DNA from: Aphrocallistes beatrix
Taxonomy: Eukaryota; Porifera; Hexactinellida; Sceptrulophora; Aphrocallistidae
Assembly (NCBI GenBank): GCA_963281255.1
Contig: OY725504.1
Location: forward strand, 930,001 to 994,000
Length of the DNA: 64,000 nt
Direction of reading: 5' to 3'
Part shown: positions 10,001 through 39,105 of the stretch, piece after piece
How positions within the stretch are numbered: position 1 is the stretch's first letter
Layout of the letters: each line of letters begins with the position of its first letter
The notes under the pieces: generated by a model
Told to the model about the DNA's origin: nothing
Database searches by the model: none
The model's input: only the letters and a program-made list of their open reading frames with translations
Position numbers and translations under genes: made by a program

Positions 10001-13000
10001 AGGATAATCTCTTCCACGCGAAAGTTATGCCAACTAAATTATTTGGGCAATAACATTTACTCAGCTTTTTTGTGGTTCATTTTTAATTAATCTCATGTCA
10101 TTTCTAGGTTAATCCAGGCGATCTGATTCAGTTGGGAGATCATTTCTTATTCATGTACAGAGATCCTTTATTTGAGCATCAGCACCCTTCCTATCGACTG
10201 AACTGGACAGCTCAGCTCGACAGTTCTCTCCCACAAACGGACACCGCACACGTACTCTCTACCGCAAAGCTTAATGAAGCGAGCATTGAGAAATGCCGTT
10301 TGGATTCTCTCTCAGAAATAAACCTACAGAATCTGCATTCAACCTCAGTTAATTCGGATGACGGATTCCATTCGATCGGTTCACTTAGTCCTAATGAGAA
10401 AAAATCAATGCTCTTTAACCTGGCCAACTTGGATAGCCTTATAAAAGCTGTTACGAAGAATTTCGATATGGAATCTGAAAAGGGGAAATTAGTTCCCGCG
10501 TGTATTCTCTCTCAAGGATTCGAGCATTCGCACAAGACTGATATTTCGTGTGCCGTGGACTTTTTTAAACACGCAACGGCTTCTCTCACCGGATCGATCA
10601 AGGTAAAAGTTCATTTGATTTTAGATTTAACTTTATCATGACTTTGTATTGAATACTTATACGACACGAATCTTCTAGTCATAACGATGCTACCTCATTC
10701 GCATTAAGTAGCATTTGTGGATGCTAATTAAAATATTCAATTTTAGATTTTTTCAGCATTCCGCTAGATCGTATCATATGTTTCACACCTCGAAAATTGA
10801 TAGCCAAACATGAATATACCATGAACCATACTCATTTTTAAATATTTCTGGTTAACCATTAATTTATCTAATTCAAATTGAATTTAACAACAACCCAACC
10901 ATAAAAGAAATTGTTGAGCTACTCGAAATCTGACATCGGGAACGATTGCTTAACTACACCAATCAATATGAGGAATGCAGAGCATTCCCATTATCTTACC
11001 TAATTACTCAAATACCACGAAATTATAATTTTATTAGATTTTTTCTCAGAGAATTTTCATTTATTTTCTGATCTCTCTTTGTCTATAGATTGCCATTACC
11101 AAACTCAGCTACCTGAGGATAGAACACACGTTGTAAGTTCCCCGCTTTTCATCAATAGCTTTAAATCAGCTACTTTTCTCTAACATTTTGTTACACATGA
11201 CCCAACTCTTGTATTCTCCATCGATGGCACGCATATTCCCATTATGGTTATTCAGTGCTGACTTACCTGGATTCAAACATGCCCAGAAAGTATGCGAGTA
11301 GGAAATCAGTCACCTCATTCTCATGAATCAATTCATTAATGGACATTGCGCAGCAGTACACAGGGATTTGTCGCTTCCCAAAACTAGACATGTTACTTCA
11401 TAAAATATGTATAGACTTATGGGCTTAAGAGTCGAGATTATTCTAAACAACCGAGCTGTGGCCCTCCTACCACTTTATTAGTTGAAGCTTATTCGCTGTG
11501 ATTCGAATTATGCTAACTTTCTCGTTCAGGTGGCTTTGCATTTAATCTTTTGATTATTAACATAAGATTTAAGATTAATAGATATCCATTATATCCATCC
11601 ATTCAGTTTAAAACCATATTAGTCAATATTAACAGGTGATTTGAGTGAATATGATCTGGGTTAGGAAGACAAGGGCATCTTTGATCTAGTTCGTCCTTAC
11701 GCTTGATTATTAAACTGAGAGGGTTGTGGTGTGGGGTGCACACCTCTATTATATTGTGGTCGGTTGGTGTTTTGATCTTGGGCTTCTTATCCAATACATA
11801 TCAAATGACTTTGCTCTTCATGCACTTAGACGATGTCTCCTTTCTCTCAGATCATTTTGCTTTGCTCTGCCCTGTTCGAGATAAAGTACAAAATTAATAA
11901 TGTTTTAATAAAAGAGGATTGTTTGGACACAAACACTTTGAACTTGCCTACTGTAAGTATCGACGATGAAAGTTTAAGTCATTGCTGACCCTCACTAATT
12001 TCAAACCATATTGATGATATTTAGCGAGCCGTTTAGTCTAGATAATGAGTTGATGACCATTGTCAAATCGTGATACGATACATGGTTGATAAGATAATGA
12101 GTCATCTCTTAAACAAACTACAGTCAGGGTCGCTTATTATGAACCCGCTTAATATGAACATTCGTTTATTATGAACTAACCTCCTGGTCCCAATTTCATT
12201 TTTTAGATAGAATTTGTATTGAATCAAGTTCGCTTAATATGAAGTATCTCTATTATGAACATATTTTTGGTCCCCTGGTGGTTCACAATAAGCGACCCTG
12301 ACTGTATAATCAACTCGGCTTAATTGGGACAAGTCTCCAGGAACGGAATGGTTCCGATGCATAGAAGCTAATACTAAATTTCATCGGTTAATTGGAAACA
12401 CTGCTTAATCGGGACAAAATACACGGGACCAAAGTGTCCCGATTAAGAGTCACCTGTATTTAGATTATTTGATTTATTTATTTATAGTCCTTCACAAGCA
12501 CTGAACATCTACGAATCCATTTCCAATCAGTTTGAGTCAACACTGCAATGGCTGAACAACGGACTTGAGTTCATCAGGTACCCTGCCGCCTACTTCGCTA
12601 GTATTGACGTCACGGATGTACTTCCAGACGAGATCACACAGCAGACATCCAAACTCGAAGCTATCATCGCAGATGGCTTTAATTCAGTCATTGAATTCTT
12701 TGACAAAGTAAATACAAATATTTATCTTTAGATTATTGATAAAACAGTAGAACCCCATTAATACGAACACCAGGGGGGATGGTCGAAATGTATTCGTATT
12801 ATCCGGAATTCGTATTAACGAGGTTCTTGTATCTATTGGAAATCTGAAATTACTGTCTGAACACATTACCTTTGATTATCTCACTTCTTCAGATTCTTCG
12901 CCCATCCCTAGCTGGGTTGATCGACGAAAACCACGTGTTATTGAATCTGAGCCCTACAAGCTCTTGCACTGAAACGAGCGGCTACATCTCCAGCACCACC

Positions 13001-19417: not shown

Positions 19418-19763
19418 TACAGTCAGGGTCGCTTATTGTGAACCGCCAGGAGACCAAAAAATCTGTTCATAATAGAGATACAGTAGAACTCGGTTAGTAC
19501 GTACTCATTTCTCTGAACCAAAATTCATTTATTATATAGATTCCTATGTAATATCAACTCGGTTAGTACGTACTTACGGATAGTACGTACTTTTTTCCGC
19601 TTCCCGGAGGGGTACGTACTAACCGAGTTCTACTGTACTTCATATTAAGCGAACTTTGTTCAATACAAATCCTATCTAAAATATGAAATTGGGATCAGGA
19701 GGTTAGTTCATAATAAACGAATGTTCATATTAAGCGGGTTCATAATAAGCGACCCTGACTGTA
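19418..19763. mobile_element. MITE interrupted by another MITE (outer element)
   Basis: It starts TACAGTCAGGGTCGCTTATT and ends with the inverted GCGACCCTGACTGTA, as does the copy at 12119-12306. The reading AATAGAGATA continues after 19637 as CTTCATATTAAGCG, exactly as in the reverse complement of the 12119 copy. The sequence between is a separate element. Confidence 0.88.
19479..19637. mobile_element. Inner MITE, 'TACAGTAGAACTCGGTTAGT' family
   Basis: Ends TACAGTAGAACTCGGTTAGT and its inverse ACTAACCGAGTTCTACTGTA. It sits inside the outer element with a duplicated TA. Related copies are at 55732-55896 and 58863-59003. Confidence 0.88.
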
Positions 19764-19870: not shown

Positions 19871-20335
19871 ATGACTCCCTGGTGGTTACACGCATTCACT
19901 CTCTGGTACGTGCTGACACTACTCTACATGGGGAAGAGATCTTGGTCAGGGGGCGTGTTTATCGGCGCCATTACGTGCTGGGGGATCATTGGAGGGATGG
20001 GAGAACATTTGAAGGTATATCTACTCGATCAGGAAGCAAGAGGAATTGATGATCGCTGGGTATTTATAGTATTTGACATTCCAATCATTTTATCACTACT
20101 TGCGATGTACATCAAGTTTGCACTCAAAACTACGGCCCCGATGAGTATGAGGATTGGTTTGGGGGTTTTGAGTATATTCCTCGTGTGGTTCTTCAACTCT
20201 ACCAATGAAGATGTCCAGGACTTTACATGGCATTCCAAACACTCCATACTGCATCTAACCACTGCCTCTGGAACAGGGATAATAGCCTTCTATTTGGACC
20301 GAAGTAAAGAAGAAGCAAATAAAAAAGTTGAGTAG
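19871..20335 (+). CDS. Multipass membrane protein, paralogue 1 (unrecognised family)
   Basis: An uninterrupted 154-residue protein with about five hydrophobic segments (roughly 5-21, 27-44, 64-84, 91-107, 122-143). I do not recognise the family. It shares with the neighbouring minus-strand gene the N-terminal pattern M-x-PWW-x-H-x-FT, the GGVF motif, WG-x-IG, an IP in the third segment, and a C-terminal D-x-TWH-x-x-HS-x-LH motif. Histidines plus an HSxxH motif in the last membrane helix recall the CREST superfamily (TMEM8, PAQR, ceramidase), but that is only a motif impression. The start is the first ATG and matches the paralogue's start in alignment. Acceptor-like TATCTAG and GTCTTAG lie just upstream, so a 5' UTR intron is possible. 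Confidence 0.75.
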   Translation: MTPWWLHAFTLWYVLTLLYMGKRSWSGGVFIGAITCWGIIGGMGEHLKVYLLDQEARGIDDRWVFIVFDIPIILSLLAMYIKFALKTTAPMSMRIGLGVLSIFLVWFFNSTNEDVQDFTWHSKHSILHLTTASGTGIIAFYLDRSKEEANKKVE

Positions 20336-20571: not shown

Positions 20572-21045
20572 TTAGTGCGTCTTTTCTCTGACAACTCCCT
20601 TAATGGGGTTCCTCATCTCCAAGTAATGCGAACACACTCCCAGGAAACACAAAGTGATGAAGTGTAATGCTGAGTGGTTGTAGTGCCAAGTTAAGTCTAT
20701 CAAGTTATCGTCTGTCTTGAAAACGACAAATCCAATCACAGTGAAAAGGAACAGGAATAGTTTTAAAGCTTTAGAAGCAGAAGAACCAATCGCGAATTTG
20801 AAGAATATAGAAATCAACGCCAACGCTGAAGGGATTCCAAACATCAGAAGAAAAATTTGAGGCTCTATTGCTTGAACTTCATAATCCCCAAATACATATG
20901 CCGAAAGATGCATCAATAGGTCCCCGATCAACCCCCACGTCATTAGCAAACCTGTAAAAACTCCACCACAGAATGATTTGCTGACATTATATGCATCTGT
21001 TGACAGGTAGAATATAGTGAAGAGGTGTACCCACCAAGGAATCAT
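20572..21045 (-). CDS. Multipass membrane protein, paralogue 2
   Basis: A 157-residue uninterrupted protein, convergent with paralogue 1 across a 236-bp spacer. It keeps M-x-PWW-x-H-x-FT, GGVF, WG-x-IG, IP and D-x-TWH-x-x-HS-x-LH at matching positions, with about five hydrophobic segments, and ends in a short basic tail. Elsewhere the two have diverged widely, so the duplication is not recent and the conserved His, Asp, Ser and Trp positions are candidate functional residues. Function and location are unknown; a membrane enzyme or receptor-like fold is possible but not shown. Confidence 0.75.
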   Translation of the reverse strand: MIPWWVHLFTIFYLSTDAYNVSKSFCGGVFTGLLMTWGLIGDLLMHLSAYVFGDYEVQAIEPQIFLLMFGIPSALALISIFFKFAIGSSASKALKLFLFLFTVIGFVVFKTDDNLIDLTWHYNHSALHFITLCFLGVCSHYLEMRNPIKGVVREKTH

Positions 21046-31822: not shown

Positions 31823-34800
31823 ATGGCTACTAACAAGAGTAGTACGCAGCCACAACCCTTGCAGCCAGAGATTGCGCTGCCAGACGAGGAAGAGAAGTTG
31901 AGAAAACAGAGGGCTTACCAAGACAGAGTTATGAAACGGCAAGAAGAGAGAAAAGCTAAAATGCAGCAGCGAAAAATGACAAATGAACACAAGCAAGAAG
32001 AAACTGCAGACTTTTTTTGGAAAGAGTTTAACCAGCAACAATCGGATATCAATTCTCTTTTTGAGCAATTTTCTAGTTCCACTCCAGTCCCCACCACCTT
32101 GTTTAAGGTTAGTCAGGAGTTTAATTTCAATTTGATGTATAATCAAATAAATCCTCTTTGGAATTGTTGGCTTATTAAGATGGTAAAAATGCTGAAATAG
32201 ACTCAGGCTAGTCACTAAGATTAATCGACAATCTTTGTTTATTTTTGTAATACTAGTAATACTGTTTCTACAGATAGTAGAACTCAGAACATTTAACACC
32301 TCACCAGACACATGCTTATAACATCAATCTCTTAAATTTACAAAGCCTAAATTTGATGAATATCATTCTTCCATAAGAGAATGTGACAAATTTTCGTGTT
32401 CCTAAACACGATCAAGCGAAAAGTCATACGCCTAAAGGAGCGTCTCGCGCTCCTAGATAATTCCTTGCGAGGATCTGCATATCATAATCCCATGACATTT
32501 TTTCTTATAATGTCATGTCTTGTATGTTATAATGTAGTATCACTTATAAGACATTTTCTGTACATCTTTTGTACATTTTGAGAGTTGTCATTGTCAACTG
32601 ACGTTTTAATTAATGATCTTTTAATTCTTTACAACTTTCCTGCCTGATTTTATGATATCTCCATTTGAACTGCTACTTTCCCAATCCATCCCATTCCCTT
32701 ACAAGGGAAGATGAATATTTTAAGTATTTATTCTCACTATCAATTATAGTACATACATGCATATGGTATGGTAATTTTAGATTTATCCTGAATATAGTAA
32801 ATTCCCTGGAAAGATATTGAATTATTTGTGGATTTCGGGGTCATGCTGAAAGGTTCTCACTTCTTGAATTGGTTTGTACATTGTTGGATATTATGCATAA
32901 TTTCAGTTTTCAATTGGGTAATCTCGTCGATATACGTAATATCTAACGTTTCAGTTTTCAGGTTAAGTACTTTCATTTCTTAAAAACATTTTGTGAATTA
33001 TATTTTTCATTTCTTAAATTGATACTTGGCTGTCATTGTGTCGTCATCTCTCATGATATCCTTATTTCTTATCGTCAATCTCCAACGTTTTAGCATTCCT
33101 ATTAGTTTCAGTAGATATAAAGTTGTGAGATATAAGGTATGCTTTTAAATCCCCTGTATATGAGTGACACATACAAATACCACAATTTTCGATAATCCCC
33201 TGTATCCATACTAACAAGAGTCAACAGTACATTGTTCACCATTCTCCACTCCAAAATGTTTACATTTAGGTATGAAGAATGGCTGGCTCTACAGATGTAG
33301 ACACTATGTGGCTTGTTGCGAAATGCAGGTTTAATTAAACTGATTTTATTCATTCATAATTCACCGTTTTATTATTTGATGTTAGACAACATCAAAGAAC
33401 AATATGACAATTAAAGAATGATGATTTTGAAACTATTATAAAATTGCGAAACTTTATTGTTATTATAGAACGTAAAGTGATTCATGAAAACATTGCAGCA
33501 GCTAATTAAACTTTAAGAGTTTCCCTGGGATTCAGATATTACTGCTCACAAGCGAATGGCGGATGTTTCGTCACTGATATTTCTTTGAATGAAATTATTG
33601 AATCCCCACTTTCATTCTCCCATTCAAAATAATAAATGACAATCACCCACCCCCTCACGAAATAAAAATACCACTCTCGCGTGCCATTTTATATTATTTC
33701 AAACTCAAAATGCTCATTTTCTCTTTGCTCTTATACATAATACTCTCCAAAATGCTCACTCTCACTCTCCTATCAATTCTATTCATCTTTAGAACAAATT
33801 CATGTTTCCCAACAGTTTGTAATTCCATTCTAAAATATCAGCGACGAAACTTCCGTTTACCCTCACAAGCAAGTTAGTTGAAATATTGAATGACGGATGT
33901 GATCATCATAGACTGACCTACTATTAACCACTATTAACCACTATTAACCACTATTAACCACGTAATAAATATAATCTTTGAAGTGTACACTGTAGATTTA
34001 GGTAGGCAAAATATTCTTAATCTACATAAGTGTAATAATTACAGACATAGAAATGCAAATTGACGAATGAACACATAACTTCCATTTACACAATGAATTA
34101 GTCAATGACTTGACGATTAGTTCTGGTTACTTATGTCCACTTCAGTACACTTTAGTCTCAATCTGCAATATGTTATTCCACTGGCAGGTTTCAAAGGAAC
34201 TATTTTTCAATTACAGATTTTCCATACATTCCTGCTTTCAAACCTTACTTTACTTCCATTCTTTGTTCGAGTGAAAGAATCAAACTTGATTCAAAGCACT
34301 CTACGACTTGATGACTCGTTTTTGGTGAAGAAAGAACTTCACTGGCGTAATATTAGAAACCATTAAGTGCATCATAGTCATGCTGATTGGTTCACAGTTC
34401 AGTATTGTTTTGAACTTTGTTTTATTTGTTGGGATCATGAAGTTATTCTCGTGAACACTCTCTTAAAATAGCGAGTTTCAAGTAAAATGTATTCATTCTC
34501 TTTTTACAAGTATCATCTCTGTTAGTTGATACCATTTAGCGGCCTTTGTTTATATTCTTTTATGACCTCTCTTTGTGTAGGAGATTGATTGTAAGCTGGA
34601 GGCTCTTCAGAAATACATGAATGATTCTACGCTCTTTCTTAGTCCTTTTGATTTGAGAATCGCAAAATCGACTTTACAAAAGTTCCAATCCGATCTGGCC
34701 AAGGAACGGACAAAACACGTTCCAAAGTTTAGCTTCAAGAAAGGATCAAAAAAAGTCCAAAATGGGAACAGTGAAAATCCTAACTCGCAACCCCTTCCAG

Positions 34801-35351
34801 TCCCTGCAGCTAAAACCATTGTAGAATTTCCTGTGAGCAAAAATTCATTTGTTTTGAAAGATAGAAATGAAGAGAGTATAGTTATTAACCCAGGTGACGT
34901 TTCTCGTAAAGATCTATTGATTATGAATTTGAATAAATGCCATCTTATGATGCAAGGTAACCCTACAACTGTGCATATGAACAACATCTCTAACTGTAAA
35001 CTGGCAATCGGACCGATCAGCACATCAATAATGATACACAACAGTACAGAGTCTGTATTTTTCCTTGCATGTCAACAGCTTCGAATTCACACATCAGAGA
35101 AAGATGACTTTTACATTCACGTGACAAGTCGGGCTATCATTGAAGACTGTTCTAAACTGCGTTTTGCACCGTATACACTGACGTACCCAGATATCCAGGA
35201 AGATTACGTTAAGTCCGGTCTAGATACAGAGGTGAATAACTGGCAGTTGGTGAACGATTTTCATTGGCTCTCCATCTCAGAGGCGTCTCCAAATTGGTGT
35301 CAGATTCCGCCACAGGAGAGGATGGACTGGCGAGATGTGCAGTCAAATTAG
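31823..35351 (+). CDS. TBCC: Tubulin-binding cofactor C
   Basis: Last-acting cofactor in the tubulin folding pathway. With cofactors D and E it stimulates GTP hydrolysis by beta-tubulin to release the heterodimer. Two exons join in phase 0: 31823-32107 and 34581-35351 (TAG), giving 351 residues, as expected for the family. The N-terminal charged, helical spectrin-like region includes ADFFWKEFNQQQSDI. The C-terminal CARP/TBCC beta-helix follows. The catalytic arginine finger lies in CQQLRIH as Arg263, in agreement with the known Gln-Gln-x-Arg motif. The single intron of about 2.5 kb is long for this window. A 10-bp tandem repeat (33921-33960) is the only repeat I saw in it. Confidence 0.95.
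32108..34580 (+). other. TBCC intron, otherwise empty
   Basis: A 2.5 kb intron with donor AAG|GTTAGT and acceptor TTTGTGTAG|GAG. Apart from the CTATTAACCA repeat I see no exon, RNA gene or transposon in it. Several short inverted motifs such as GGAGCGTCTCGCGCTCC near 32438 are too small to call. Confidence 0.5.
33921..33960 (+). repeat. Four copies of CTATTAACCA
   Basis: Four perfect 10-bp units in the TBCC intron. There is no sign that they are transcribed into anything functional. Confidence 0.9.
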
Positions 35352-36202
35352 GAAAGGATTATCCGTATGCTAGCTCAGATTGTTTTAATCATTTCTTTCA
35401 ATCAAATTATATAATTTCCATTTGCTTTTAAATATTCCTTATGAAAGTGTGTTTAACTATCTACGGATCTTTTTCTCCAAAAATTGTACAAATTCGATGG
35501 GTTTTCTTCGTGTTTTAGGAGAGCCAACAAGTAATCGCACATGAGGAAATTATTTATATTCGCTTAGCTTTTATAACTAATAATACACAAGCTTCATCTG
35601 TAGTTTTAATAATTAATCTTCAACTCCTCCTTCCTTACCGATACCTAACCTTATCCGACTTTGTCCTCGATAATGGAAGATTTGTCTCCGTTTTAAAATC
35701 TTCACATCCAAAAGTATCGAATACAATTGTCATCATCAACTTTTCTATATATTGTCTCACTTTGACTCTCCTTTATTCCTGAAAACCTGTCTCATTATAC
35801 TAATCTTGCAGTTAATTCTCACTCTAAAATACATCCAATGGCTTTATCACTTGTAATGTACTTGCACACATTGCAGAACTATGGTGTTCTAATTCATTTT
35901 ATGTAGTGAAAATCAATCTGTACAGGTTCAGTACTCGTGTGTATCAAGTCATAATAATTACACTGTTTATGGCTTTGTTCTGATAGATATTCTTTGAGGT
36001 AGTACCGCACCAATTATTCATTTTTAGTGACTTCATTCAATAATTTATTCAAGTTTTCTGATAAGTTAATTCTTGAAGTAGGGATAATGACCTAAGTCTA
36101 AAGGTGAGATTGTCACTGAGATTTGTGGGCGTTCGATGTTTTATTGGTTTATGTTTAGGGGAGTTCTTCCTTATTTACGTAATATTGTGATAATATGTAT
36201 AT

Positions 36203-36829
36203 AAGAGCATGCTCTCGACCCAAGAGCATGCTCTCGATCGAAGAGCATGCTCTCGACCCAAGAGCATGCTCTCGACCCAAGAGCATGCTCTCGATCGAAG
36301 AGCATGCTCTCGACCGAAGAGCATGCTCTCGATCGAAGAGCATGCTCTCGACCCAAGAGCATGCTCTCGACCCAAGAGCATGCTCTCGACCCAAGAGCAT
36401 GCTCTCGACCCAAGAGCATGCTCTCGACCCAAGAGCATGCTCTCGCCCTAAGAGCATGCTCTCGACCCAAGAGCATGCTCTCGACCGAAGAGCATGCTCT
36501 CGACCGAAGAGCATGCTCTCGACCGAAGAGCATGCTCTCGACCGAAGAGCATGCTCTCGATCGAAGAGCATGCTCTCGACCCAAGAGCATGCTCTCGCCC
36601 TAAGAGCATGCTCTCGACCGAAGAGCATGCTCTCGACCGAAGAGCATGCTCTCGATCGAAGAGCATGCTCTCGACCGAAGAGCATGCTCTCGATCGAAGA
36701 GCATGCTCTCGACCTAAGAGCATGCTCTCGACCGAAGAGCATGCTCTCGACCGAAGAGCATGCTCTCGACCGAAGAGCATGCTCTCGACCTAAGAGCATG
36801 CTCTCGACCGAAGAGCATGCTCTCGACCA
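36203..36829 (+). repeat. 33-copy, 19-bp palindromic minisatellite (p53-family half-site-like)
   Basis: Thirty-three head-to-tail 19-bp units. Each contains the perfect palindrome AGAGCATGCTCT followed by CG. Sixteen of the 19 positions are invariant in all units by eye. The three variable positions are all in the spacer, giving variants CGACCCA, CGATCGA, CGACCGA, CGCCCTA, CGACCTA and a last CGACCAA. The core GAGCATGCTC fits the p53/p63/p73 half-site consensus RRRCWWGYYY with 9-bp spacing between cores. Because the unit has no stop codons, long open frames appear on both strands; I do not regard them as genes. Confidence 0.97.
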
Positions 36830-36949
36830 AACTGTCCATATAGAAGTCCCGGAGGCTGAGTGGGGAGGAATTCAGAAATTAGAATTGTCTGTATTAGAGC
36901 GAAAACATATAGTCTACTCTATTTTAATTGATATCTATGTACTTTAGTT

Positions 36950-37126
36950 GTAGATAACGGACACATTGGGGACATGGCTTTTGTCCATTGTAAAGAGATG
37001 TCCTCTTCTCGGAGAGTGCTTAACTATTGCATACGTATTTGGTAAATTAATTCCGTTCCACGAGGTTTGTCCGTTCTAGAGGAGTTGTCCGCTTTTCGGA
37101 GTGTCCGGTTTGGAAGACCCCACTGT
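36950..37126. mobile_element. Possible decayed Tigger-like element
   Basis: The right end reads CCGGTTTGGAAGACCCCACT then GTA, the CAGTGGGGTC style of a Tigger end in reverse. Internal GTCCGTTCTAGAGGAGTTGTCC and GTCCTCTTCTCGG look like repeated subterminal motifs. The left end is not clear. Confidence 0.4.
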
Positions 37127-37767
37127 ATACGGAGACACTTTAGTAAACATGATTGTTGGATATCTGTTTTGTTATAATCAATTCGCCTGATTTGTGAGTT
37201 AATTAAGTATCTAAAAATAGAGTTGTTAATGACATCTTGGTTTCAGTTCGATCCGTAATAATGATGCACTCATGTTGCAGTGGTGTAAAATTGAGATATT
37301 TTTAGTACGCATTACATCATATATGTCAGAAAGAAGTCTATTTATAATCCTGAAAAACTTCCCAGATTTAATATATTTCGTAGTTTGTATATTATTTCTT
37401 CAAACTAGTGGGTTATTTTCGCATTTCTTAAGGTGAGTATTACATTTTAAATTAAATAACTTTGCTTATAAATCTTCCTTTGTGTTGTTTGTACTATGTA
37501 AACATTTCTGTTTATGACCTTATAAGTATCGAACGCAATGCAAAATCCAAATCATTTATCTACATTGAAATCAGGACACTTCGAAACTAGATTCGCGAAC
37601 AGTTACCATATTATATGAATGCTCTTTATTCTGTTTGTTACCAAGCATTTATTCAGAGTTGATTTTCGATTTAATAAGATATGATACATATATATTGCAT
37701 AATATGATTGCGTTGGCATGGCGGCATAGCAGCATCACTTGTAATAATACAATGACAAAAAAATAAT

Positions 37768-39105
37768 TTACAATGCTGTGGCGAGATTGTCAGACATTAT
37801 GTCTTGAAGGAATTTGGAATCTTCTTTCAGCGCTGTGACCCACTTTCTAATTTCATTCATGTGTTGGTTGTATTCGGTGTCGCGGGACATCATTTCGCTG
37901 AAGAACTCTTGCCATTCGATGTCTAAATTTCTCACTTCTTTCTGAGTTTCGGAAAATTGGCTTACGAATGATACCCATTCAGTCTTGTTGAGAATTCTGC
38001 TTTTACTGACGTAATCCTTCTTTAGCTCTTTAAGTTTGATTTGTTGTGCAATGGTCCTACTTTCGAGTGATATTATTTTAAAGTCGCTACAGTCAAGGAT
38101 TGTGCTGTTAGTTTTCGCGAGGGGCCGCTTTTCTAAAAGGTTTTCCATTGAGTGAGACCTTTCGTATTTTCCATTCTCCTGTACTGTAGTCACTGGATCT
38201 TTTCTTCTCATTTCAACATGAGACCCACGCCCACTCTCTATGCCCAAAATTCGAGGCAGCGAATTTGAGTTAGAGCCATTCATATTCGTTTTATACATTC
38301 CAAATGCAGAACTCGATCTGTTTTGCTGTAACTGATTTGTGTTGATAATCCGAGCATTTGCCACTTCACGAGGATTAATCGCTCCACTTGATAGATGTGA
38401 GTACTTGACTTTACTTCTCACATCTCTACTGTCGTATCCACCGTCAGCGGTCCTGCTTCTATTTGACGTGATTCCTGTGCTCATCGCTTTGGAGATTGGC
38501 GATGGACGATTTTCAATGACTAATGCATTTTTCTTCTTAGGAATTGGAGAGTGATTGGGACATGGGTAGATATTTCTTGTATGGGGTCGTTCCATTTCGG
38601 AGCGGTATTCACTTGACTGTACTAGATTGTTTGCTGATCCGTGTTGGCTCCTCTTTATCTCGTGAGATTGGGGAACAGGTGACTGCACCTGTCGTCGCCT
38701 TGTTTCAGGCGTGACTGGGATAGCTCCCCTTTTAAGCCTTCGGTACTCGTAAGATTGGCTGACTCGCTGAAGTGGTGCATGTGAGAAATCATCACTGGAT
38801 CTGGTATACGGTTCCTCTTTGCTGAATTTTTGGACTTGTAAGTTGATTGCATCTTCAGGGTTAGATGTACTTCTTTGGTGGTAAATGCCTCCCATACTTT
38901 TCTTCTTCTGACTGGACATCTTATCTAGGGTATTTTCTAATAGAGATAGCTTTTTCTTGATATCTTTTTCCATTTGTCCGATTATTTGTATTTCACGTTC
39001 CTGTTTCTTGCGAATACTTTCTTCATTATTAATTTCTCGCTTCAAGCTATTCACCTTTTCCAGCAAATACTCATCATTCCCTTGGTTGTACACAAGTTCT
39101 GTCAT
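37768..39105 (-). CDS. Coiled-coil protein, unrecognised
   Basis: An uninterrupted 445-residue frame starting at the first ATG. Residues 10-70 are a highly charged heptad-like coiled coil (NSLKREINNEESIRKKQERE). Residues about 75-330 are polar, low-complexity and rich in Ser, Arg and Pro with repeated EYR motifs, so likely disordered. Residues about 340-445 form a second helical, coiled-coil-like region rich in Glu, Lys and Trp. I do not recognise a domain. A cytoskeletal, centrosomal or junctional adaptor is the kind of protein this composition suggests, but nothing proves it. It is divergent from eIF3G across 321 bp, and convergent with TBCC. Confidence 0.72.
   Translation of the reverse strand: MTELVYNQGNDEYLLEKVNSLKREINNEESIRKKQEREIQIIGQMEKDIKKKLSLLENTLDKMSSQKKKSMGGIYHQRSTSNPEDAINLQVQKFSKEEPYTRSSDDFSHAPLQRVSQSYEYRRLKRGAIPVTPETRRRQVQSPVPQSHEIKRSQHGSANNLVQSSEYRSEMERPHTRNIYPCPNHSPIPKKKNALVIENRPSPISKAMSTGITSNRSRTADGGYDSRDVRSKVKYSHLSSGAINPREVANARIINTNQLQQNRSSSAFGMYKTNMNGSNSNSLPRILGIESGRGSHVEMRRKDPVTTVQENGKYERSHSMENLLEKRPLAKTNSTILDCSDFKIISLESRTIAQQIKLKELKKDYVSKSRILNKTEWVSFVSQFSETQKEVRNLDIEWQEFFSEMMSRDTEYNQHMNEIRKWVTALKEDSKFLQDIMSDNLATAL

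What the first reader, a model, noticed from the sequence alone, without database searches (positions are those of the whole stretch)
36203..36829. Array of 33 palindromes that fit the p53-family half-site consensus
Every 19-bp unit carries AGAGCATGCTCT. Its core GAGCATGCTC satisfies RRRCWWGYYY with the favoured CATG centre, and cores are spaced by 9 bp, within the spacing allowed for paired p53/p63/p73 half-sites. Seen directly: 33 units, palindrome unchanged in all, variation only at three spacer positions. Inference: the core may be under selection, for example as a binding platform, decoy or boundary element for a dimeric factor. The alternative is plain minisatellite homogenisation of a sequence that happens to fit a loose consensus.
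Basis: partly seen in the sequence, partly recalled or inferred. Interest (0 to 1): 0.72.

Follow-up and report, generated by a model that had tools for sequence, protein, structure and literature searches.

The report
Transposon-derived array of short palindromes
A run of 33 identical short DNA palindromes that looks like a landing strip for the p53 protein is best explained as a leftover repeat from a family of small jumping genes scattered through this animal-like genome, so the p53 resemblance is probably a coincidence.

Summary
In detail: window 36203-36829 holds exactly 33 units of 19 bp, each with AGAGCATGCTCT, varying at three spacer columns only. The 12-mer is not peculiar to this place: the 100.5 Mb genome has 1,298 exact copies against 1 for the reversed control. 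In many loci read it is the tandem sub-terminal repeat (22-bp unit) of a small non-autonomous DNA transposon (MITE), with 8-bp target-site duplications abutting both ends in 20 of 29 loci tested. The window's 19-bp unit recurs on seven further contigs; on C20 such an array still has both transposon ends and the duplication AAATTCTG. The window array itself has no ends.

p53 reading: the fit is real and the genome has two p53-family genes. But in 12 arrays single-unit mutations are equally frequent in core and spacer (14 in 4,570, 14 in 4,387 cells), and 18 of 27 core variants break the consensus. Best reading: transposon-derived minisatellite; the palindrome is probably a transposase-binding site (inferred; transposase not found). 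A p53 role is unlikely but untested.

The parts
36203..36829 (.). Minisatellite, 33 x 19 bp, unit AAGAGCATGCTCTCGACC(G/C/T) with minor variants, each unit with the perfect palindrome AGAGCATGCTCT
36204..36823 (.). 33 palindromic cores (GAGCATGCTC), start-to-start 19 bp, fitting RRRCWWGYYY; same core as the sub-terminal repeats of a dispersed MITE family
36123..36202 (.). Left flank (80 bp): no direct repeat of 7 bp or more shared with the right flank; no transposon end within 35001-38500 at up to 6 mismatches in 20
36830..36909 (.). Right flank (80 bp): no direct repeat of 7 bp or more shared with the left flank
34617..35351 (+). Neighbouring gene, tubulin-binding cofactor C domain; its stop codon faces the array
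37768..39105 (-). Neighbouring open frame of 445 aa (no Pfam family at E 0.001); its stop codon faces the array, so the array is in a convergent gap
36195..36947 (+). Open frame through the array (250 aa); judged a by-product of the unit (one frame on each strand is stop-free across the array), no Pfam match

Best explanation
The array is a transposon-derived minisatellite. Shown: a family of short DNA transposons is scattered through this genome; their ends carry one to several tandem copies of a 22-bp unit centred on GAGCATGCTC, copies sit between 8-bp target-site duplications, and related 19-20-bp units form longer arrays elsewhere, one of which (C20, 1.3 kb from end to end, its middle not read) lies between both transposon ends and an 8-bp duplication. 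Inferred: the window's array is one such expansion that lost its element ends (or was seeded from one by recombination), and was then made uniform by unequal exchange or gene conversion. Inferred: the palindrome was kept at the element ends because it is a binding site of the (unfound) transposase, extra copies possibly helping mobilisation, as proposed for foldback elements. The fit to the loose p53 half-site consensus is then incidental.
For: 1,298 exact 12-mers genome-wide against 1 for the reversed control. Palindrome in 22-bp tandem units inside two kinds of end; 139 exact 24-nt ends (76 + 63) in 76 loci, 50 of them with two or more ends, 45 of these 50 spanning 150-860 bp. Exactly abutting 8-bp duplications in 20 of 29 loci tested, 22 of 29 allowing one mismatch, against 1 of 600 cross-pairs of flanks (for one of the 20, L013, the end motifs were taken from its own duplication). 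One copy sits inside a hAT transposase gene with AGGTTATG on both sides. Bridge to the window's 19-bp unit: the two-unit pattern is found on C4, C11, C12, C13, C14, C16 and C20 too (29 of 57 matches lie outside the window, control 0), and C7 has a 19/20-bp array with 235 exact cores in 4.9 kb. The C20 array has both ends and duplication AAATTCTG, C13 one clear end preceded by a 22-bp unit, C4 and C14 one degenerate end each. Window and C20 arrays share the ...GACCGAA and ...GATCGAA type variants. Singleton mutations: core 14/4,570, spacer 14/4,387 cells.
Against: The window array itself has no ends, no target-site duplication and no MITE interior beside it, so its transposon origin rests on unit identity; of ten 19-bp array loci whose flanks I read on at least one side, ends were seen in four. 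No autonomous element or transposase was found: 4 of 150 hAT, 1 of 121 MULE and 0 of 131 P-type hits lie within 5 kb of an exact end, the four being one nested insertion copied and the one a separate element; only part of the hAT candidates was scored (150 of 672). The core is the same across units whose spacers differ, and distinct variants per site are fewer in core than spacer (27/160 against 46/156, p=0.025), which leaves room for some constraint; but most loci were found by searching for the core. A first pooled count that included MITEs gave a larger core/spacer gap (61/5,440 against 449/5,431 cells), set aside because units in both orientations inflate the spacer differences. Transposase binding is not shown.
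Confidence: 0.85

Rival explanations
1. p53-family platform: one of the two p53-family proteins binds the array (tetramers across neighbouring half-sites 9 bp apart), and selection keeps the core as an enhancer or decoy.
For: Perfect RRRCWWGYYY in 33 of 33 units. Two P53-domain genes (E 6.6e-40 and 1.9e-25). In the L005 protein the aligned equivalents of human S241, R248, R273, A276, R280, R283 and the four zinc ligands are present (alignment, human numbering assigned by me). The array is 1.6 kb from the start codon of the TBCC frame and 2.6 kb from that of eIF3g, within the distances at which tandem p53 half-sites regulate mouse Rbl2, Ncoa1 and Klhl26 (PMC3386156; abstract, passages, sections 7 and 12 read). 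In the MITE form 7 of 15 changed cores keep the consensus (three of the seven are copies of one composite).
Against: Singleton mutations equal in core and spacer; 18 of 27 core variants break the consensus, 9 keep it (33%; uniform substitution would keep about 27%, my calculation). With the core left free in the pattern, 9 of 40 (19-bp form) and 15 of 100 listed of 120 (22-bp form) units have a changed core, and 16 of these 24 break the consensus. The array is in a convergent gap rather than at a promoter (weak). The L3 loop of L005 is two residues shorter than human, and L006 lacks the R248 equivalent.
Confidence: 0.07
2. Plain local minisatellite born by slippage here, unrelated to the dispersed repeats.
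For: No ends or duplication at this locus.
Against: The 35-nt two-unit pattern is found on seven other contigs and 0 times for the reversed control; the 12-mer recurs 1,298 times.
Confidence: 0.04
3. Structural or boundary element: the palindromes act through hairpins, cruciforms or another palindrome-binding protein.
For: The single strand folds far better than 20 shuffles (-239.7 kcal/mol, z -27), as any array of palindromes must.
Against: Folding follows from the sequence and says nothing on selection; arrays differ widely in length and place, and singleton core mutations are not suppressed.
Confidence: 0.04

Closest known systems
Tetris / TIR-220 of Drosophila virilis (foldback transposon whose internal tandem repeats became satellite DNA; PMC4079207, abstract and passages seen)
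   Same: Element without apparent coding capacity, with variable numbers of tandem repeats inside its inverted ends; the same repeats also form longer satellite-like arrays, some flanked by element ends and some not; transposase-bearing partner not found.
   Different: Unit is 19-22 bp with a perfect 10-12-bp palindrome rather than about 220 bp; ends differ; 8-bp duplications and mostly sub-kilobase size look MITE-like.
Bivalve and other satellites tied to DNA transposons (PMC8268682, PMC12628747: search listing and start of abstract only)
   Same: Dispersed arrays related to mobile elements.
   Different: Not compared in sequence here.
Fuzzy tandem repeats with p53 response elements (mouse Rbl2, Ncoa1, Klhl26; PMC3386156, abstract, passages, sections 7 and 12)
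   Same: Clustered half-sites fitting RRRCWWGYYY in tandem repeats, poorly conserved between species.
   Different: There the clusters are tied to p53-dependent regulation by reporter assay and ChIP; here the sites belong to a transposon repeat and no binding or constraint is shown.

Membership tests
MITE (non-autonomous cut-and-paste DNA transposon), for the dispersed family | Target-site duplication of fixed length abutting both ends | tested here: met
   8 bp exact in 20 of 29 loci tested (four had no usable pair of ends), 1 of 600 cross-pairs
MITE (non-autonomous cut-and-paste DNA transposon), for the dispersed family | Terminal inverted repeats | tested here: met
   AAAAGTCGAGA + palindromic units inverted at both ends; the outermost 9 bp differ between the two ends (CTTATAATA / GAGGTATTG), so the inversion is imperfect
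MITE (non-autonomous cut-and-paste DNA transposon), for the dispersed family | Short, multi-copy, no transposase frame | tested here: met
   76 loci with exact ends; 45 of the 50 with two or more ends span 150-860 bp; no frame over 134 aa in the three long copies listed (not run against Pfam, and some letters of the long copies are withheld)
MITE (non-autonomous cut-and-paste DNA transposon), for the dispersed family | Autonomous partner with the same ends | tested here: inconclusive
   none found near the listed hAT, MULE or P hits; the KDZ search rang nowhere, controls included
MITE, for the window array itself | Element ends and target-site duplication around the array | tested here: not met
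Satellite derived from a transposon repeat (Tetris type) | Same repeat inside element ends and in longer arrays | tested here: met
   22-bp units in MITE ends and 19-20-bp arrays; C20 array between two ends with AAATTCTG on both sides
hAT superfamily | 8-bp target-site duplication | tested here: met
   such a length also fits P and MULE elements (recalled)
hAT superfamily | Palindromic repeat shared with hAT transposase loci | tested here: not met
   0 of the 30 best hAT loci cut out (about 1.5 kb each side) carry the exact core
p53 response element | Two RRRCWWGYYY half-sites within 13 bp | tested here: met
   33 cores, 9 bp apart
p53 response element | p53-family protein in the genome | tested here: met
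   two genes
p53 response element | Constraint on the half-site | tested here: not met
   singletons 14/4,570 core against 14/4,387 spacer cells; 18 of 27 core variants break the consensus; distinct variants per site are lower in the core, p=0.025
p53 response element | Binding and p53-dependent expression | not testable with these tools
   needs gel shift, ChIP, expression

The most novel reading that the evidence does not exclude
A MITE family has sown well over a thousand near-perfect p53-family half-sites, singly and in arrays of up to more than 200, through a compact animal-like genome that keeps two p53-family proteins, so that the transposon acts as a sponge for, or rewires, the p53 network.
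Probability: 0.07. Interest if true: 0.75.

Novelty: new member of a known kind. Interest (0 to 1): 0.3.

Why it matters
It explains the array and shows a series in one genome from transposon end repeat, through expanded repeat between transposon ends, to free-standing minisatellite. It also cautions that a short palindrome fitting a loose consensus can reach high copy number through a transposon. If p53 did bind it, the same series would be a natural experiment on how a transposon seeds binding-site arrays.

Tried and rejected
Coding reading: the 250-aa frame over the array was dropped (no Pfam; open frame explained by the unit). Autonomous partner: the long copies L028, L038 and L075 show no frame over 134 aa; the best MULE hit, 4.3 kb from an exact end on C1, has inverted repeats of about 39 bp of its own; hAT hits beside MITE ends are one nested insertion, copied; the P/THAP gene near the C6 array has no such ends in the stretch held; KDZ rang nowhere. 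First pooled core/spacer count (core 61/5,440, spacer 449/5,431 cells) was set aside because MITEs with units in both orientations inflate spacer differences; one search uses 12 tandem arrays (units of 18-22 bp, length classes of at least 4 units, cores with up to 4 mismatches, so units with larger changes or indels are not counted; stretches L086-L096, fetched later, are not in it). Organism: not identified; the rRNA search did not complete. Literature: GAGCATGCTC (32 papers, 20 listed) and AGAGCATGCTCT (1 paper) gave nothing recognisable as this repeat in the titles and abstract starts listed; a subterminal/palindromic MITE search gave 3 papers, not opened; 100.5 megabases gave 0. On re-checking I weakened the position argument (distances to start codons are within the mouse range) and added that 7 of 15 changed MITE-form cores keep the consensus; for this the p53 reading went from 0.06 to 0.07 and the structural rival from 0.05 to 0.04.

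Full report
Observation. The window is G000:C18:930001-994000 of a 100,537,919-base assembly in 28 contigs; its genes (TBCC, eIF3g, RIO kinase, phosphatidylserine synthase, homogentisate dioxygenase) are eukaryotic, and two p53-family genes point to an animal or a close relative (inference; organism not identified). The array is 33 exact 19-bp units at 36203-36829 with the 12-bp palindrome unchanged in all 33 and three variable columns. It lies between two convergent frames, TBCC ending at 35351 on + and a 445-aa frame ending at 37768 on -.

Genome-wide. AGAGCATGCTCT occurs 1,298 times, its reversed control once. Reading loci shows 1 to over 200 cores per locus with periods of 19, 20 and 22 bp and several spacer families. 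In many loci the units sit between two kinds of end, CTTATAATAAAAAGTCGAGA and GAGGTATTGAAAAGTCGAGA, inverted relative to each other. Not all: L003, L012 and L014 have a single core without such ends. Exact 24-nt ends number 76 and 63, in 76 loci, 50 with at least two ends, 45 of these spanning 150-860 bp. I tested 29 loci for 8-bp repeats abutting the ends: 20 exact, 22 with at most one mismatch, three with two to six mismatches, four without a usable pair; identical 8-mers occurred in 1 of 600 cross-pairs (the best end pair per locus was taken, and for L013 the end motifs came from its own duplication). One copy interrupts a hAT transposase gene with AGGTTATG on both sides; hAT matches beside MITE ends at three other places, one of them read (L073), indicate that the composite was copied. 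This is a MITE family.

From MITE to minisatellite. The two-unit 19-bp pattern of the window is found 57 times, 28 in the window array and 29 on C4, C11, C12, C13, C14, C16 and C20, control 0. C7 has a related 19/20-bp array with 235 exact cores in 4.9 kb, still running at the end of the last stretch read. On C20, 1,309 bp lie between a left end with CTTATAGTA and a right end with CAATACCTC, with AAATTCTG on both sides; the stretches read at both sides and near the right end are 19-bp units, the middle was not read. C13 has one clear end after a 22-bp unit; C4 and C14 have one degenerate end each. C6, C11, C16 and the window show no ends; for C7 and C12 only the left outer flank was reached. 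So the window array is placed in the series by its unit, not by its own borders.

Is the core protected? In 12 tandem arrays (457 units in 16 length classes) variants seen in a single unit, the freshest mutations, are 14 in 4,570 core cells and 14 in 4,387 spacer cells. Distinct variants are 27 in 160 core sites against 46 in 156 spacer sites (p=0.025); the difference lies in variants carried by more than one unit (13 against 32), which are older and in part recur between arrays. Of 27 core variants 9 keep RRRCWWGYYY and 18 break it; uniform substitution would keep about 27% (my calculation). Patterns that fix only the spacer and leave the core free give 31 of 40 intact cores for the 19-bp form and 85 of the 100 listed (120 in all) for the 22-bp form; of the 24 changed cores 16 break the consensus and 8 keep it (1 of 9 and 7 of 15). 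In the arrays the core thus decays like the rest. Its sameness across spacer families (for example L004, L011, L015), and the 7 of 15 in the MITE form, are compatible with a role in transposition, but most loci were found by the core, so this is not a clean test.

p53. Two P53 domains are present (C12, E 6.6e-40; C1, E 1.9e-25). By the alignments, with human numbering assigned by me, the C12 protein keeps S241, R248, R273, A276, R280, R283 and the zinc ligands, has S for C277 and a loop L3 shorter by two; the C1 protein lacks the R248 equivalent. So a competent reader may exist. Tandem p53 half-site repeats can work in mouse (PMC3386156; abstract, passages, sections 7 and 12 read), at distances to start sites that this array would also meet (1.6 and 2.6 kb to start codons). 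Against a role here stand the mutation data and the absence of any general excess of half-sites in the window; the convergent position counts only weakly.

Mechanism. Most likely: tandem palindromes at the ends of a MITE served the transposase (inferred; proposed for Galileo and Tetris in PMC4079207, passages seen), were multiplied by unequal exchange, and some arrays outgrew or lost their element. The superfamily is open: 8-bp duplications fit hAT, P and MULE elements (recalled), but 0 of 30 hAT loci carry the core, and proximity of exact ends to hAT, MULE and P hits (4 of 150, 1 of 121, 0 of 131 within 5 kb) is explained by nesting or a neighbouring separate element. The hAT list scored 150 of 672 candidates, so a partner could be missed.

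Verdict. A real repeat with an ordinary origin: a new member of the class of transposon-derived satellites, with a very short and palindromic unit.

Noticed in passing
L072 295-895; C2 and C10 copies: A copy of the MITE lies inside a hAT transposase gene (duplication AGGTTATG), and hAT matches beside MITE ends are found at four places in all, so the composite was probably copied.
   Followed up: partly
L074/L007 (C1:7230050-7234313): MULE element with a 706-aa open frame and inverted arrays of about 39-bp repeats as its ends, about 1 kb from a palindrome array: tandem repeats in transposon ends may be common in this genome.
   Followed up: partly
L009 5545-5940 and 6395-8007: THAP/P-type transposase frames with short inverted tandem repeats upstream.
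   Followed up: partly
L003 1502, L014 4146: Two loci carry a single AGAGCATGCTCT with similar flanks but no tandem units (L003 also a nearby GGGCATGCCC), perhaps another dispersed repeat.
   Followed up: no
L028: A 3.1 kb copy of the element has the same frames on both strands, as in a long inverted repeat (fold-back form).
   Followed up: partly
window 19871-20335 (+) and 20572-21045 (-): Two small membrane-protein-like frames in convergent orientation, similar by eye, no Pfam family.
   Followed up: no
window 12130-12177 and 19706-19752: Short tandem repeats whose 15-16-mer units are reverse complements of each other (GTTCATAATAAGCGA), perhaps from another dispersed repeat.
   Followed up: no
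L005 and L006: Two p53-family genes with the DNA-binding domain in a single open frame; one has lost the R248-equivalent stretch.
   Followed up: partly
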